This document shows positions 3,826 to 7,285 of a DNA stretch of 7,299 nucleotides, one piece after another. Below the pieces are notes generated by a model. It saw nothing but the letters and a program-made list of their open reading frames with translations. It was not told where the DNA came from and ran no database searches. The position numbers and the translations under genes are program-made. Source of the stretch: Methanoregulaceae archaeon (GTDB taxonomy: Archaea; Halobacteriota; Methanomicrobia; Methanomicrobiales; Methanospirillaceae); assembly GCA_019695435.1 (NCBI GenBank), contig JACTVF010000116.1, forward strand, positions 1-7,299, given 5' to 3'. Position 1 is the first letter of the stretch, and every line of letters begins with the position of its first letter.

Positions 3826-5481
3826 TTAGTAGTCGCCCATGCCACCCATACCGCCCATGCCGCCCATGCCTGGCGGCATGCCACCGGCACCGGGTGCCGG
3901 GGCGGGGGACTTCGAAGAGGCGATCACATCGTCAATGCGGAGGATCATGATCGCGGCTTCTGCTGCAGATGAGATTGCCTGGGTCTTGACACGGAGCGGC
4001 TCGACAACGCCGGCTGCCTTCATGTCAATTATCTTGCCTTCGTAGACATTAAGACCGTAGGTCTTCTTGCCCTTCTCGTGCGCTGCACGGATTTCGACAA
4101 GCATGTCGATAGGGTCGAGTCCTGCGTTCTCTGCAAGGGTGCGCGGAATGATCTCAAGGGCCGACGCGAACGCTTCGATGGCGAGCTGGGCCCTGCCGCC
4201 GACACTTGCCGCATATTCGCGGAGCCGGAGCGAGAGCTCGGTCTCAGGTGCACCGCCGCCGGCGACGACCTTCTTGTCCTCGACAACAACCGCAACAACG
4301 CGGAGTGCATCGTGGATCGCACGCTCAAGCTCATCGACAACGTGCTCGGTTCCACCACGGATAATGATCGAGACTGCCTTGGGGTTTTTGCACTGCTCGA
4401 CAAAGGTCATCTCTTCTCCGGAGACCTTGCGCTCTTCTACGAGTCCGGCCTTTCCGAGCTCGTCCTTGCTGATCGCGTCAATCGACGAGACGAGACTGCC
4501 ACCGGTTGCCCGGGCAAGCTTCTCCATATCGCTCTTCTTGACACGGCGGACGGCGAAGATGCCGGCCTTTGCAAGGTAGTGCTGTGCGATATCGTCGATA
4601 CCCTTCTGGCAGAAGAGAACATTTGCACCGCTTGCGACGATCTTTTCGACAATGCCCTTGACCATGCGCTCCTCTTCATCGAGGAATGCCTGTAACTGCT
4701 CGGGGTGGGTGATGTTGATCTCGGCGTCGACTTCGGTCTTCTTGAACTCGACTGCTGCGTTTAAGAGAAGCAGCTTGGCGTTCGTGACCTTTTTTGGCAT
4801 CGCCGGGTGAACGCGCTCCTTGTCGATGAGTACACCTTCAACGATCTCGGAGTCATCAATGCTGCCGCCGGTCTTCTTCTCGACCTTGATGTTGTCGGTG
4901 TCAACAGTGCCATCTGCATCGGCAACCATGGTGACGGCCTTAACGACGAGTTCACAGAGCTTGTCCTTTGAGGACTCTGCGCTCTTGCCGGTCATCGCGG
5001 TCTCAGCGATCTTCTTGAGCATCGCCTTGTCAGTTGGCTTGACGTCGAACGCGATGTCCTTTAAGAGTTCCTGGGCCTTCTCTGCGGCCTGCCGGTATCC
5101 TGCGGCGATAATGGTCGGGTGGACGTCCTGTTCGAGAAGTGCCTCGGCCTTCTTTAAGAGTTCTCCGCCGATGACGACTGCGGTGGTGGTTCCGTCGCCG
5201 ACCTCGTCATCCTGGGTCTTTGCGACCTCGACCATCATCTTTGCGGCCGGGTGCTCGATGTCCATTTCCTTTAGAATGGTGACACCATCGTTCGTGATCA
5301 CGACATCGCCAATGGTGTCGACAAGCATCTTGTCCATACCCTTGGGGCCGAGCGTGGTCCTGACTGCACTGGCAACTGCCATTGCAGCGGTGATGTTCAT
5401 ACCCTGGGCATCACGGCCGCGGGTACGGTTGGTGCCTTCCTTAAGAATGAGAATCTGTTGTCCTCCAAGTTGTTGCGACAT
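3826..5481 (-). CDS. ths: Thermosome subunit (group II chaperonin)
   Basis: This 551-residue protein has the normal thermosome length and matches the family throughout. It forms the double-ring, lidded ATP-driven folding chamber of the archaeal cytoplasm. ATP-site motifs are present: [13 protein letters not shown] (43-55), NDGVTIL (64-70), GDGTT (95-99), the catalytic Asp391 in IHDALRVV, and AGGGAPE (407-413). The C-terminus is a flexible Gly-Gly-Met repeat tail (533-549) ending in GDY, as in many thermosomes, encoded by a 9-bp DNA repeat. The start is set at 5481 (MSQQLGGQQ): GGTGAT at 5493-5488 lies six bases before it, and the in-frame extension to 5595 would run through the TATA box and into the inserted element, with no family similarity. 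The gene stands alone with its own promoter. Paralogues with mixed rings are common in methanogens; which one this is cannot be told here. Confidence 0.98.
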
Positions 5482-5493: not shown

Positions 5494-5513
5494 ACTTTTA
5501 GCACTAAAATTGG
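5492..5513 (-). promoter_or_regulatory. Dyad-symmetric operator candidate at the thermosome transcription start
   Basis: TTTTAG (5496-5501) and CTAAAA (5504-5509) are perfect inverted arms around 2 bases. The symmetry continues after one mismatch with CCA (5492-5494) and TGG (5511-5513), giving 9 of 10 matched positions per arm. It lies between the TATA box and the ribosome binding site, where the start site is expected (near 5500). Binding there by a dimeric regulator would block transcription. Archaeal heat-shock repressors such as Phr and HSR1 work from such positions, but this motif is not identical to theirs as I know them. Confidence 0.5.
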
Positions 5514-5523
5514 TTTGTGGTTC

Positions 5524-5531
5524 TATATAAA
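5524..5531 (-). promoter_or_regulatory. TATA box of the thermosome gene
   Basis: TTTATATA on the minus strand, preceded by purine-rich GAGAATA as a possible TFB-recognition element. It is 43 bases before the start codon, predicting a leader of about 20 bases. It ends only 13 bp from the left end of the inserted element at 5545. Confidence 0.8.
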
Positions 5532-5536
5532 TATTC

Positions 5537-5544
5537 TCTAAAAA
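5537..5544 (+). repeat. Left copy of the target-site duplication
   Basis: TCTAAAAA directly abuts the left terminal inverted repeat (GGTTCTG at 5545). An identical copy in the same orientation abuts the right terminus at 6352-6359. Confidence 0.7.
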
Positions 5545-5629
5545 GGTTCTGGTGCAATGAAGATTGATCAACCGAACGTGCGGTTGGTGTTGCATCGCGG
5601 TTGGTAAGACCGTATTAGGTTCTGGTGCA
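5545..5629 (+). repeat. Left terminal and subterminal repeats of the element
   Basis: This end holds AGGTTCTGGTGCA twice (5544-5556 and 5617-5629; the first base of the first copy belongs to the flank), GCGGTTGGT twice at 17-base spacing (5580-5588 and 5597-5605), and an inverted pair CAACCG (5569-5574) and CGGTTG (5581-5586). Clusters of short subterminal repeats are common transposase-binding arrays. They also lie directly upstream of the thermosome promoter. Confidence 0.7.
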
Positions 5630-5641
5630 TGGCGGGGGTTG

Positions 5642-5896
5642 TTACTCCAATCCTGCCTTTTCTCTCAAAACGTGATCACGATATTTCCTATAGCACTTAG
5701 TGGAATCATATTCCTGCGCCCAGTTGGATTGCCCCACAATTTTATATCGAAATGTTTTGCCGTTCAGATATATTTCTGCACAATGTAAGCGGGAGCATTC
5801 GGCTCTGGCACGAAGTAAACGAATCCATTTTGGTTCTTCGCATTCCGTCCAGACGTTCGTCGCTTTCAGGAATGCATAATGAATTCGTCGGATCAT
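5642..5896 (-). CDS. Small basic protein of the inserted element, unknown function
   Basis: I do not recognise a family. The 84-residue product is basic and aromatic-rich, with four Cys (19, 34, 39, 68) and an Arg/Lys-rich middle: [16 protein letters not shown] (24-39), then [14 protein letters not shown] (41-54) that looks like two beta strands, then [13 protein letters not shown]. This pattern fits a small folded, possibly nucleic-acid-binding protein, but that is inference. Codon use is more A/T-rich than in neighbouring genes (TTG, AGA, AGG, ATA). ATG 5896 has only a weak GAAGAG-type site about five bases upstream. A TATA-like TTTAATA (plus strand 5946-5955) lies about 50 bases upstream. 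The stop lies 13 bases inside the internal copy of the element's end repeat. A second overlapping ORF starting at 5924 looks less protein-like. Confidence 0.5.
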
Positions 5897-5945
5897 TTGT
5901 TCTCTTCATTCTTGAGTGGCTCAAACCATCAGGATTGTGATGCAG

Positions 5946-5957
5946 TATTAAATTTAA
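5946..5957 (-). promoter_or_regulatory. Possible TATA box of the 84-aa gene
   Basis: The A/T-only stretch TATTAAATTTAA (plus-strand reading), nearly self-complementary, is about 50 bases before ATG 5896. It would give a leader of about 25-30 bases. Confidence 0.4.
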
Positions 5958-5999
5958 GAAGGTTTTGATCGGTGGTAGTTGGTAAAGTACAGTAGAAGA

Positions 6000-6007
6000 T
6001 TTATTTA
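6000..6007 (+). promoter_or_regulatory. Possible TATA box of the small membrane protein gene
   Basis: TTTATTTA, 65 bases before ATG 6065, predicts a start near 6030 and a leader of about 35 bases that would contain the palindrome at 6043-6060. Confidence 0.45.
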
Positions 6008-6042
6008 GGTGATTTTATCTGTTCAGACGCCATGGCATAAAA

Positions 6043-6060
6043 TGTTCACGCATGTGAACA
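6043..6060. promoter_or_regulatory. Perfect palindrome TGTTCAC-GCAT-GTGAACA before the membrane protein gene
   Basis: Two perfect 7-base arms (6043-6049 and 6054-6060) surround four bases and end four bases before ATG 6065. In DNA it could be the operator of a dimeric regulator; in RNA it would be a stable hairpin close to the start codon. Confidence 0.55.
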
Positions 6061-6064
6061 GGGT

Positions 6065-6268
6065 ATGTGGTTTCATATGGAGGAAAAAGGGCAGGCATCG
6101 TCATGTAACAATGTCCATCTGATCATCGGTATCGTTGTTGTCATCATCCTTTTTATCATTGCATTCTATGCACACCGTAATCTTGTTACTGGGATTACCG
6201 CATTAATCGCTGGCGTAATCATTGGTATGTTTCTGGGTGAGAAATGTACAATGAAAAAGTGCAAATAA
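6065..6268 (+). CDS. Small two-span membrane protein with glycine zipper, carried by the inserted element
   Basis: The 67-residue product has two hydrophobic segments, about residues 18-36 and 40-58, separated by a short AHRN turn, so it is probably a membrane hairpin. The second segment contains a glycine zipper, Gly50-x3-Gly54-x3-Gly58, which in other small membrane proteins promotes tight packing or oligomers. Cys residues lie near both ends (Cys14, Cys61, Cys66), and the tail is Lys-rich. The start could be ATG 6065 or, in frame, ATG 6077 (MEEKGQ); neither has a strong ribosome binding site. It is divergent from the 84-aa gene and ends 83 bp before the right terminus. A toxin-like, stress or envelope role is possible, but nothing proves one. 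No family is recognised. Confidence 0.6.
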   Translation: MWFHMEEKGQASSCNNVHLIIGIVVVIILFIIAFYAHRNLVTGITALIAGVIIGMFLGEKCTMKKCK

Positions 6269-6291
6269 CCATATTACTCTTTTCTGACATT

Positions 6292-6351
6292 CCAACTGCG
6301 ATGCAACGCGGTCAGTCAATTGCAACACCCAACCGCGAATGCAACAGAACC
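6292..6351 (-). repeat. Right terminal and subterminal repeats of the element
   Basis: Read on the minus strand from 6351 inward: GGTTCTGTTGCA at the terminus, TTGCATTCGCGGTTGG (6344-6329), CGGTTGGGTGTTGCA (6335-6321) and TTGCATCGCAGTTGG (6306-6292). These are inverted relatives of the blocks at 5545-5605, in the same order but with different spacers. Confidence 0.7.
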
Positions 6352-6359
6352 TCTAAAAA
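6352..6359 (+). repeat. Right copy of the target-site duplication
   Basis: TCTAAAAA directly follows the right terminus CAGAACC (6345-6351) and is identical to 5537-5544. It is also part of the poly-T tract behind the regulator gene. Confidence 0.7.
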
Positions 6360-6361: not shown

Positions 6362-7285
6362 TCACTCGCCCAGCATATCGAGGAGTTCAAACCCGTCCTC
6401 GATGTCATGGAGGCGCTCCTCACCGATCACCAGCGTCCGCCCGATTTTTTTCTGGTGGTGGTAATCGGTGATGATGCACATCGCGTGCTTCTTTGCGATC
6501 TTCGAGAGGTTGCTGATGAGTGCGGCCCTTTTCACCACCTTCTGCGCCGGGCCGTAGCCGGTGAGGATCGTGTGCTTGTCAAAGGTGAGGAGGGCCTGGA
6601 ACGGTGCGCCGCGGAGGGTGTGGAGCTGAATCCCGAGCTGCTCAAGGAATTCGATGGGAATGCCCGGGACCTGCATTTTCTTTGACTCTTCCGGCCCGGA
6701 TTCTGAAGGTTCGCGCCGGACAATATCGATGGACTCGACCACTCCCGTATTGAAGTACTCCTCAATCCTGATCGCGACATCGAGCGTCGTGCCCATCCCG
6801 CTCTCGTACTTGCTGATCGTGCGCCGTGACACGCCGAGCACCTGCCCGAGATCGCCAAGCGACAGGTTGCGCCGCTCCCGGAGATCCCGCAGGGCATCGC
6901 CATTGATGTTCACGTACAGCCCGCCGGGCGAGGCATAGACCAGCGGCGGGATCTTCTCCACAAAATAATCGTACAGCGTCGCGACGCTGATCGCGTAGAT
7001 GCCGTACCGGACATAGACCGCCCCCCGCTCAAGTTCGGCCTCGCGGGCGCGTTCCCCGACAATCAGGGGCACACCCCCGAGATGCCGGGAGATCACGTCC
7101 AGGTCAAACGCCGCTTCCTCGCTCACCGAGTCGATATGCGCGACAACTTTGATCACGAGCAGGATCCCGTTGTTGCGTGCGATGAGATCGAAACTCCTCG
7201 GCCGGAGGGTAAACTTCTCGGATACCTCAAATCCCGCCGAGATCATCACACTGGTGACCAGCTGGAGCTGGCGTTCCTGAGACAT
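6362..7285 (-). CDS. Archaeal HTH-type transcriptional regulator, COG1395 type
   Basis: This 307-residue protein has three parts. Residues 1-115 form an N-terminal alpha/beta domain with SFDLIARNNGILLVIKVV (31-48), resembling a restriction-endonuclease-like fold in which Asp33 and Lys46 remain but the acidic residue of the ExK motif is absent, so nuclease activity is unlikely. Residues 131-182 are an XRE/Cro-type helix-turn-helix: LRDLRERRNLSLGDLGQVLGVS followed by the recognition helix RRTISKYESG. Residues 205-307 form a C-terminal domain with the PIEFLEQLG and ALISNLSKIAKKH segments seen in uncharacterised archaeal regulators annotated as putative HTH-type transcriptional regulatory proteins. 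The assignment is from memory of that family. Target genes are unknown. The start ATG 7285 is close to the window end, so the promoter is not visible. It is co-oriented with, and upstream of, the thermosome gene, separated from it by the inserted element. Confidence 0.88.
   Translation of the reverse strand: MSQERQLQLVTSVMISAGFEVSEKFTLRPRSFDLIARNNGILLVIKVVAHIDSVSEEAAFDLDVISRHLGGVPLIVGERAREAELERGAVYVRYGIYAISVATLYDYFVEKIPPLVYASPGGLYVNINGDALRDLRERRNLSLGDLGQVLGVSRRTISKYESGMGTTLDVAIRIEEYFNTGVVESIDIVRREPSESGPEESKKMQVPGIPIEFLEQLGIQLHTLRGAPFQALLTFDKHTILTGYGPAQKVVKRAALISNLSKIAKKHAMCIITDYHHQKKIGRTLVIGEERLHDIEDGFELLDMLGE

What the first reader, a model, noticed from the sequence alone, without database searches (positions are those of the whole stretch)
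5537..6359. Undescribed-looking mobile element: inverted termini, subterminal repeats and an 8-bp target-site duplication
GGTTCTG at 5545 and CAGAACC ending at 6351 are perfect inverted ends within a 12/14 imperfect terminal repeat. TCTAAAAA touches both ends in direct orientation. Several longer subterminal blocks recur inverted and in the same order. An exact 8-mer exactly abutting both ends is improbable by chance (about 1 in 65,000 for random bases, less stringent because it is A-rich). There is no transposase inside, yet two small genes are present, so it is either a gene-carrying non-autonomous element or a compact element with an unfamiliar mobilisation strategy.
Basis: partly seen in the sequence, partly recalled or inferred. 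Interest (0 to 1): 0.85.

Follow-up and report, generated by a model that had tools for sequence, protein, structure and literature searches.

The report
Archaeal transposon that targets TATA promoters
This 807-base stretch is a transposase-less, gene-carrying member of a transposon family found across several archaeal phyla; most copies with clear ends sit, with an 8-base target duplication, five bases from the promoter's TATA box (here that of a heat-shock chaperone), so its enzyme likely finds new sites by recognising promoters.

Summary
In detail: 5545-6351 has IS6-like inverted ends, subterminal repeats and an exact 8-bp duplication. It lies between a chaperonin (thermosome) promoter and an HTH gene. 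Of 44 orthologous loci taken, 32 are empty, 10 hold an element of this kind, 2 another insert; a tree needs 7 gains or losses. Transposase-bearing relatives are 2.5-8.8 kb with a SWIM/Zn-ribbon/DDE transposase and varied passengers, some restriction-modification. The surprise is the target: in 17 of 24 elements with exact duplications a TATA box (TTTAWATA, 6 of 8 or better) starts exactly 5 nt outside (random sites: mean 0.6, maximum 4). A later set gives 4 of 4, one ambiguous; 16 of 22 distinct targets fit. Ordinary archaeal IS6 elements give 0 of 16. Targets include thermosome, Hsp20, Cdc48, TFB and RadA genes. I propose that the transposase inserts beside the archaeal core promoter, probably guided by TBP/TFB; the position is shown, the protein contact is not. 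Bacterial TnGBS/ISLre2/ISKra4 are precedents with other transposases.

The parts
5537..5544 (.). target-site duplication, thermosome side (TCTAAAAA)
   Evidence: identical to 6352-6359; empty sites in 32 of 44 orthologous loci
6352..6359 (.). target-site duplication, HTH-gene side (TCTAAAAA)
5545..5604 (+). thermosome-side element end: terminal motif GGTTCTGGTGCA plus subterminal motif GTTGCATCGCGGTTGG (5589-5604)
   Evidence: similar ends in G048, G037 and G027 at the same site
6292..6351 (-). HTH-side element end: terminal GGTTCTGTTGCA plus subterminal GTTGCATCGCAGTTGG (6292-6307)
   Evidence: 87% identical over 61 bp to an end in G027
5618..5629 (+). third, internal copy of the terminal motif GGTTCTGGTGCA
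   Evidence: (D2)
5642..5896 (-). 84-aa ORF, possible passenger of unknown function; may not be a gene
   Evidence: no homologue, no Pfam family
6065..6268 (+). 67-aa ORF, probable small membrane protein (by eye), passenger
   Evidence: 12 homologues at 64-79% identity besides the window's own entry; none in the other 107 family genomes searched
5524..5531 (-). TATA box TTTATATA of the thermosome promoter, starting 5 nt outside the target-site duplication
3826..5481 (-). target gene: thermosome (group II chaperonin)
   Evidence: Pfam Cpn60_TCP1, E 2.3e-198
6362..7285 (-). neighbouring HTH regulator whose 3' end abuts the target site
   Evidence: Pfam HTH_3; matched in 97 of 108 family genomes

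Best explanation
The stretch 5545-6351 is a transposase-less member of an archaeal transposon family with IS6-like ends and an 8-bp target duplication, and its insertion beside the thermosome TATA box was likely made by a family transposase that recognises the archaeal core promoter. Shown from sequence: inverted two-motif ends, exact 8-bp duplications, empty sites, repeated gain or loss at this site, relatives with one SWIM/Zn-ribbon/DDE transposase plus passengers, and the commonest spacing element - 8-bp duplication - 5 nt - TATA box. Inferred: the transposase cuts 8 bp apart just upstream of the BRE/TATA element, guided by the promoter DNA or, in my preferred version, by TFB/TBP bound there; the core promoter stays intact, so the insertion does little harm; because the promoter-proximal 8 bp survive, the next element can enter at the same place, giving tandem arrays with one shared duplication (one full case seen); and the window copy was moved in trans or lost its transposase by deletion.
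For: Ends, duplication and empty sites. Transposase-bearing relative at the same site in G027: 8,015 bp, duplication TTTTTCAA, Bpu10I-like restriction enzyme, two DNA methylases, SWIM + DDE_Tnp_IS240 transposase. Independent events: 10 occupied against 32 empty loci need 7 changes on the tree, at least 6 forced by starred branches. Wide family: the genome-contig scan gave 48 loci; of the first 39 all but one bear archaeal labels (Methanoregula, Methanoperedens, Methanothrix, Thaumarchaeota, Bathyarchaeota, Thermoplasmata and others; L107 is labelled bacterium). Target rule: TTTAWATA at 6 of 8 or better exactly at offset 5 in 17 of 24 elements, the best match within 50 bp in 16, against mean 0.59 and maximum 4 of 24 in 2000 random draws; no other offset is best in more than 3. 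Later set: of 17 new loci 4 gave ends, and 4 of 4 have the box at offset 5. Combined 21 of 28, 16 of 22 distinct targets; the aligned targets read NAANNTTTATATA while the duplication itself is nearly unconserved. Specificity control: IS6-model elements through the same script, 0 of 16, or 0 of 9 under the stricter score limit used for the family. In 24 of 28 an ORF of 60 aa or more starts 38-98 nt from the element's end in the promoter's direction. Tandem array with three copies of CTCAACTG. Host genome: transposase fragments on three other contigs and two further ends with a TATA match (7 of 8) at offset 5.
Against: 7 of 28 elements miss offset 5 at score 6 or better: L085, L087, L098, L104, L105, L107, L115; L104, L105, L107 and L115 have a good box at offsets 1, 6, 3 and 10. 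Without the demand of being best, offsets 3 and 7 also reach score 6 in 11 and 8 of 24, which I put down to the TA repeat of the box. One further pair, L110, passed the score limit but was left out before the count; it has no TATA box at offset 5 on either side, so counting it as a miss gives 17 of 25 and 21 of 29. L132 is ambiguous: both sides score 6. The promoter side was named after looking, although the random control also used both flanks; random sites were not matched for A+T content or intergenic position. The IS6 control comes from other, unnamed hosts of the phylum (haloarchaea by my guess), not from the family's own genomes. Ends were not found for most transposase loci: accepted for 20 of 40 and for 4 of 17. 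No experiment shows transposition; no TBP/TFB contact was tested; the window copy has no transposase, and the host assembly (84% complete) shows only transposase fragments. In five of six candidate arrays the outer boundary of the neighbour was not found.
Confidence: 0.78

Rival explanations
1. Same element family, but the transposase reads the bare DNA (AT-rich, bendable TATA/BRE sequence) and no transcription factor is involved.
For: The conserved target block is NAANNTTTATATA, which a DNA-binding domain could read directly; the transposase has SWIM-type and InsA-like zinc-binding parts.
Against: The boxes scored point away from the element, with an ORF starting 38-98 nt from the element's end in 24 of 28, so the orientation of the promoter seems to be read. 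Selection against damaging insertions could also produce this, so the evidence is weak.
Confidence: 0.35
2. Survivorship only: insertion is random and only insertions that leave promoters and genes intact persist.
For: The insertions lie upstream of genes, where damage is least.
Against: Survivorship gives a broad upstream zone, not one peak: 16 of 24 best matches at offset 5, at most 3 at any other; IS6-model elements show 0 of 16; the thermosome site needs at least 6 gains or losses.
Confidence: 0.05
3. A conserved chromosomal hotspot: a site-specific island between two conserved genes, exchanged by homologous recombination in the flanks, not by transposition.
For: Cargo differs at one conserved place, and two loci hold inserts without these ends (G018, G104).
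Against: Exact duplications absent from empty sites, related ends with a transposase and their own duplications at unlinked loci, and transposase genes inside.
Confidence: 0.05
4. The window copy is a dead relic: two unrelated degraded ends brought together by deletion, with no mobility left.
For: The two terminal sequences diverge beyond about 13 bp, a third internal motif copy is present, and no full transposase was found in the host assembly.
Against: Both ends keep terminal and subterminal motifs and an intact duplication; the 67-aa ORF is open with homologues of similar size.
Confidence: 0.3

Closest known systems
IS6 (IS6/IS26) family, including its archaeal clades (PMC7986276, PMC6807381; passages read)
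   Same: 8-bp duplications, ends of the GG.....G type, DDE domain of the IS240/IS6 type in 21 of 21 transposases scanned.
   Different: Transposase-bearing elements of 2.5-8.8 kb, 23 of 24 with a further ORF of 80 aa or more, instead of about 0.8 kb; transposases of about 370-415 aa with N-terminal SWIM-type and zinc-ribbon cysteines; two-motif ends; promoter targeting, absent in 16 of 16 IS6-model copies tested. The review names a single passenger-bearing IS6 member, ISDsp3, and the second paper argues that archaeal members should not be in the family at all.
TnGBS, ISLre2 and ISKra4-group elements (prokaryotic Mutator-like transposases; PMC3942029, passages read)
   Same: DDE transposons that insert at a fixed distance (15-17 bp for TnGBS) upstream of promoters; the transposase may ride with large cargo.
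   Different: Bacterial sigma-A promoters; p-MULT transposases. Here archaeal TATA promoters and an IS6/IS240-type DDE domain, although 12 of 21 also give a Transposase_mut match and the best fold match is ISCth4 (TM about 0.4), which I recall as an IS256-family enzyme. That paper suggests that ISH6 of archaea may favour AT-rich promoter or intergenic regions.
Ty3 retrotransposon (PMC8632968; seen only in a search listing)
   Same: Precise insertion in a narrow window upstream of transcribed genes; from recall, guided by TFIIIB, whose Brf1 and TBP parts are relatives of archaeal TFB and TBP.
   Different: A retroelement with an integrase at RNA polymerase III genes; factor contact established there (recalled), only inferred here.
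Tn7 (recalled)
   Same: A neutral landing site at a conserved gene, reused by elements with defence cargo.
   Different: Tn7 reads glmS coding DNA through TnsD, gives 5-bp duplications and needs several Tns proteins (recalled). Here one transposase was recognised, and the fixed point is the promoter, not the end of the HTH gene.

Membership tests
IS6/IS26 insertion sequences | transposase over the NCBIfam IS6 cut-off (125 bits) | tested here: inconclusive
   L077 transposase 107 bits, below the cut-off but its best family; 21 of 21 match the model at E 0.001 or better, scores of the other 20 not shown. Some relatives found pass, e.g. G343 148 and G179 144 bits; those gave no accepted ends.
IS6/IS26 insertion sequences | 8-bp target duplication | tested here: met
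   24 plus 4 elements with exact 8-bp duplications, 8 bp being the length asked for by the script
IS6/IS26 insertion sequences | compact element of about 0.8 kb filled by one transposase gene, no passengers | tested here: not met
   transposase-bearing relatives 2.5-8.8 kb, 23 of 24 with a further ORF; window copy 807 bp without transposase
promoter-targeting p-MULT elements (TnGBS/ISLre2/ISKra4) | insertion at a fixed distance upstream of promoters | tested here: met
   21 of 28, for archaeal TATA promoters
promoter-targeting p-MULT elements (TnGBS/ISLre2/ISKra4) | Mutator-like (p-MULT) transposase | tested here: inconclusive
   best family IS240/IS6 in Pfam and NCBIfam; 12 of 21 match Transposase_mut more weakly, 20 of 21 the IS256 model; no phylogeny with p-MULT was built
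non-autonomous element / MITE | both ends of an autonomous family, no transposase | tested here: met
   no transposase; ends shared with G027
non-autonomous element / MITE | mobilised in trans by a relative's transposase | not testable with these tools
   only transposase fragments were found in the host assembly
Ty3-like, general-transcription-factor-guided integration | direct contact of the integration enzyme with TBP/TFB-type factors | not testable with these tools
   position relative to the TATA box only

The most novel reading that the evidence does not exclude
A transposon family spread over several archaeal phyla finds its target by docking on the TBP-TFB complex assembled at core promoters, the archaeal counterpart of Ty3. 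It inserts 8 bp apart just upstream of BRE/TATA, leaves the promoter working, regenerates its own landing site and so stacks elements promoter-proximally, making the promoters of chaperone, Cdc48, TFB and recombinase genes growing ports for restriction-modification and other defence cassettes.
Probability: 0.4. Interest if true: 0.92.

Novelty: new variant of a known kind. Interest (0 to 1): 0.8.

Why it matters
Targeted transposition beside promoters is known for yeast retroelements and for a few bacterial Mutator-like elements; I found no report of it for archaeal TATA promoters in the searches named in the report. If true it gives a natural system, apparently with one transposase, with a defined target in archaea, a simple setting in which to ask whether general transcription factors guide transposases, and an explanation for defence genes collecting beside housekeeping and heat-shock promoters. 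One review of thaumarchaeal mobile elements states that composite transposons with diverse passenger genes had not been detected in archaea (PMC6563490, passage read); the elements here carry passengers within single-transposase units.

Tried and rejected
Site-specific island without transposition, survivorship, and chance duplication were weighed and put among the rivals or the observation check. A Tn7-like rule (target = 3' end of the HTH gene) was my first idea; it fell when unlinked copies showed that the fixed point is the TATA box, not the HTH gene. The 84-aa ORF gave no homologue. The 67-aa ORF has homologues but none in the other 107 family genomes searched, so it says nothing about mobility. 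The AlphaFold model is moderate (mean pLDDT 75) and only supports an RNase-H-type transposase fold. Inserts at the site in G018 and G104 show no such ends and were not counted as elements.

In one search, of 30 loci 17 gave pairs; that of L161 is spurious (negative length), leaving 16, of which 9 score 7 or less; none has the box at offset 5. Of 97 genomes with an HTH-gene match, 44 loci including the window were taken for the empty-site survey. Of 84 passenger ORFs listed, 75 went into the domain scans together with 3 from thermosome-site copies; 9 (doubtful overlaps and pieces of transposases) were left out.

Full report
What is in the window. The contig belongs to an archaeal assembly (2.99 Mb, 508 contigs, 84% complete). 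Genomes of its family that share this locus are named Methanoregula or Methanoregulaceae in the open collection, so the host is most likely a methanogen of that kind. The element 5545-6351 lies between the promoter of a thermosome gene (3826-5481, minus; Pfam Cpn60_TCP1) and the 3' end of an HTH regulator (6362-7285, minus). Both ends begin GGTTCTG and carry a second motif about 45 bp inside; TCTAAAAA flanks the element on both sides. Two ORFs, 84 and 67 codons, lie inside and no transposase.

It is an insertion. The HTH gene matches in 97 of 108 genomes of the family. I took the stretch downstream of it in 43 further genomes plus the window. In 31 the gap to the chaperonin start is 50-76 bp, and one more (G025) is empty by eye; 10 hold an element with related ends at one or both sides, two of them cut by a contig end; 2 (G018, G104) hold another insert. 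Five of the eight occupied loci with both flanks in hand have an exact 8-bp duplication: TTTTTAGA (the window, read from the HTH side), TTTTTCAA, ATTTTCAA, GAGACTCA and GCGACTCA; G005 has two mismatches, and G010 and G030 have three, with decayed ends. A tree of the two flanking proteins needs 7 changes between occupied and empty, at least 6 forced by well-supported branches, so the site has been gained or lost repeatedly.

The family. The copy in G027 at the same site is 8,015 bp with a Bpu10I-like restriction enzyme, two DNA methylases, an HD phosphohydrolase, a deoxyribosyltransferase-like protein and a 398-aa transposase with SWIM and DDE_Tnp_IS240 domains. The transposase query matched 9 of 108 genomes of the host's family, some by fragments only, and an alignment of six matched 19 of 392 of the phylum. 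The named genome collection gave 48 loci; 38 of the first 39 are labelled archaeal, from Methanoregula, Methanoperedens, Methanothrix, Thaumarchaeota, Bathyarchaeota, Thermoplasmata and others; the short matches L116-L124, in part from Chloroflexi, were not used. All 21 transposases scanned match the IS6 model, as they do the IS1 and IS481 models, IS6 with the best E-value; the first has 107 bits, below the curated 125. Pfam gives DDE_Tnp_IS240 in 21, SWIM in 7, Transposase_mut in 12 of 21; the SWIM-type cysteines and histidine and four zinc-ribbon cysteines are invariant in the alignment. An AlphaFold model (mean pLDDT 75) resembles RNase-H-type transposases, first of all ISCth4. Passengers vary: of 78 cargo proteins 5 match N6_N4_Mtase, 2 N6_Mtase and 1 each restriction families such as MvaI_BcnI, RE_Bpu10I, GmrSD_N and HSDR_N, only the 25 most frequent of 67 families being shown; among PADLOC families mad2 is matched by 6 and type II methyltransferase models by up to 5 of 78. 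Many passengers have no assigned function.

The target rule. Boundaries were set by a script that asked for an exact 8-bp duplication and matching ends around the transposase, without looking at promoters. Together with the window and three further thermosome-site copies this gave 24 elements. Reading outward from the duplication, TTTAWATA at 6 of 8 or better starts exactly 5 nt away in 17 of 24 and is the best match within 50 bp in 16. Random positions in the same loci gave a mean of 0.59 and at most 4 of 24 in 2000 draws, and no other offset is best in more than 3. Without the demand of being best, offsets 3 and 7 reach score 6 in 11 and 8 of 24, a register effect of the TA repeat as I read it. 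A set fetched afterwards (18 loci, one a duplicate) gave four elements with accepted ends, all four with the box at offset 5, one of them (L132) ambiguous. Combined: 21 of 28; after collapsing shared targets 16 of 22; the consensus NAANNTTTATATA fits an archaeal BRE/TATA (recalled), while the duplicated 8 bp are nearly unconserved. Left out before the count was L110, which has no box at offset 5 on either side; with it the figures are 17 of 25 and 21 of 29. These hosts are not the family's own.

The target genes. An ORF of 60 aa or more starts 38-98 nt from the element's end in the promoter's direction in 24 of 28; the exceptions are L081, L104, L107 and L126. By Pfam the genes are chaperonin (the window and, by sequence, four further copies at this site), Hsp20 (L079, L080, L125), CDC48 (L067, L097), TFIIB-type TFB (L092, L098), an Ssb-like OB protein (L085, L087), Rad51/RadA (L112), anthranilate synthase (L115), a PLP enzyme (L091), an aquaporin-type channel (L086), isocitrate/isopropylmalate dehydrogenase (L104) and others; L081, L093 and L096 gave no family. 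Of seven distinct target loci in the host's order, six are heat-shock or protein-quality genes (thermosome, three Hsp20, two Cdc48) and one (L081) is unassigned; whether this reflects stress-driven transposition is open.

Arrays. In G103 two elements stand side by side with three copies of CTCAACTG, the shared copy between them. This follows if each insertion spares the promoter-proximal 8 bp. In five other loci (L067, L079, L087, L131, L132) another end-like sequence abuts the duplication on the far side, but no convincing outer boundary of the neighbour was found.

The window's host has more of the family: GGTTCTGNTGCR occurs 17 times against 1 for the reversed pattern, though several of the 17 look like chance matches by eye; two further ends have a TATA match (7 of 8) at offset 5 (L145, L159), and transposase fragments lie on contigs C87, C97 and C212. 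No intact transposase was found in this incomplete assembly, so the source of mobility of this copy is unknown.

Comparison with what is known. IS6 elements: same duplication length and end type; this branch differs by size, passengers, N-terminal domains and target (passages of PMC7986276 and PMC6807381). Promoter targeting is known for bacterial TnGBS, ISLre2 and ISKra4 elements, for TnGBS 15-17 bp upstream of sigma-A promoters (passages of PMC3942029), and for yeast Ty3 at RNA polymerase III genes (PMC8632968, seen in a listing). A survey of thaumarchaeal mobile elements reports 244 IS of 13 families and says that composite transposons with diverse passengers had not been found in archaea; 'promoter' and 'TATA' do not occur in its main text (passages of PMC6563490). 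Paper searches listed no report of archaeal transposons aimed at TATA promoters; these are capped listings of open-licence papers, read by title and start of abstract.

Verdict. That most of these elements sit at one fixed place upstream of TATA boxes is shown from sequence; that the transposase, rather than a later process, sets this place is strongly implied by the single-offset peak; that TBP/TFB guide it is a proposal for the bench.

Noticed in passing
5496-5509: Palindrome TTTTAG-CA-CTAAAA between the TATA box and the thermosome start, recurring in most empty and occupied loci printed, sometimes in variant or split form; perhaps a heat-shock operator.
   Followed up: no
L009 8225-8250; L040: In genus g11 the element enters before the stop codon of the HTH gene and supplies a new stop, adding a few codons.
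   Followed up: no
L017 and L044: G018 and G104 carry 425- and 440-bp gaps at the thermosome site without IS6-like ends: another kind of insert or decayed copies.
   Followed up: no
5618-5629: A third copy of the terminal motif inside the window element, possibly a trace of an older nested element or a third transposase site.
   Followed up: partly
L010 9081-9203: In G037 the HTH-side end runs almost at once into a transposase relic, with a GNAT acetyltransferase gene left as cargo.
   Followed up: partly
L094 8473-8784: The ORF behind the promoter beside this Methanoperedens copy looks like an IS200/IS605 TnpA, judged by eye: one mobile element aimed at another's promoter.
   Followed up: no
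L110 2227-11271: A 9-kb stretch in a Cenarchaeum contig with an 8-bp duplication and inverted ends but no TATA box at offset 5: a counter-example or another kind of repeat.
   Followed up: partly
L092, L098: Two copies, in a Nitrososphaera and another thaumarchaeote, sit at the promoter of TFB, the very factor proposed to guide them.
   Followed up: no
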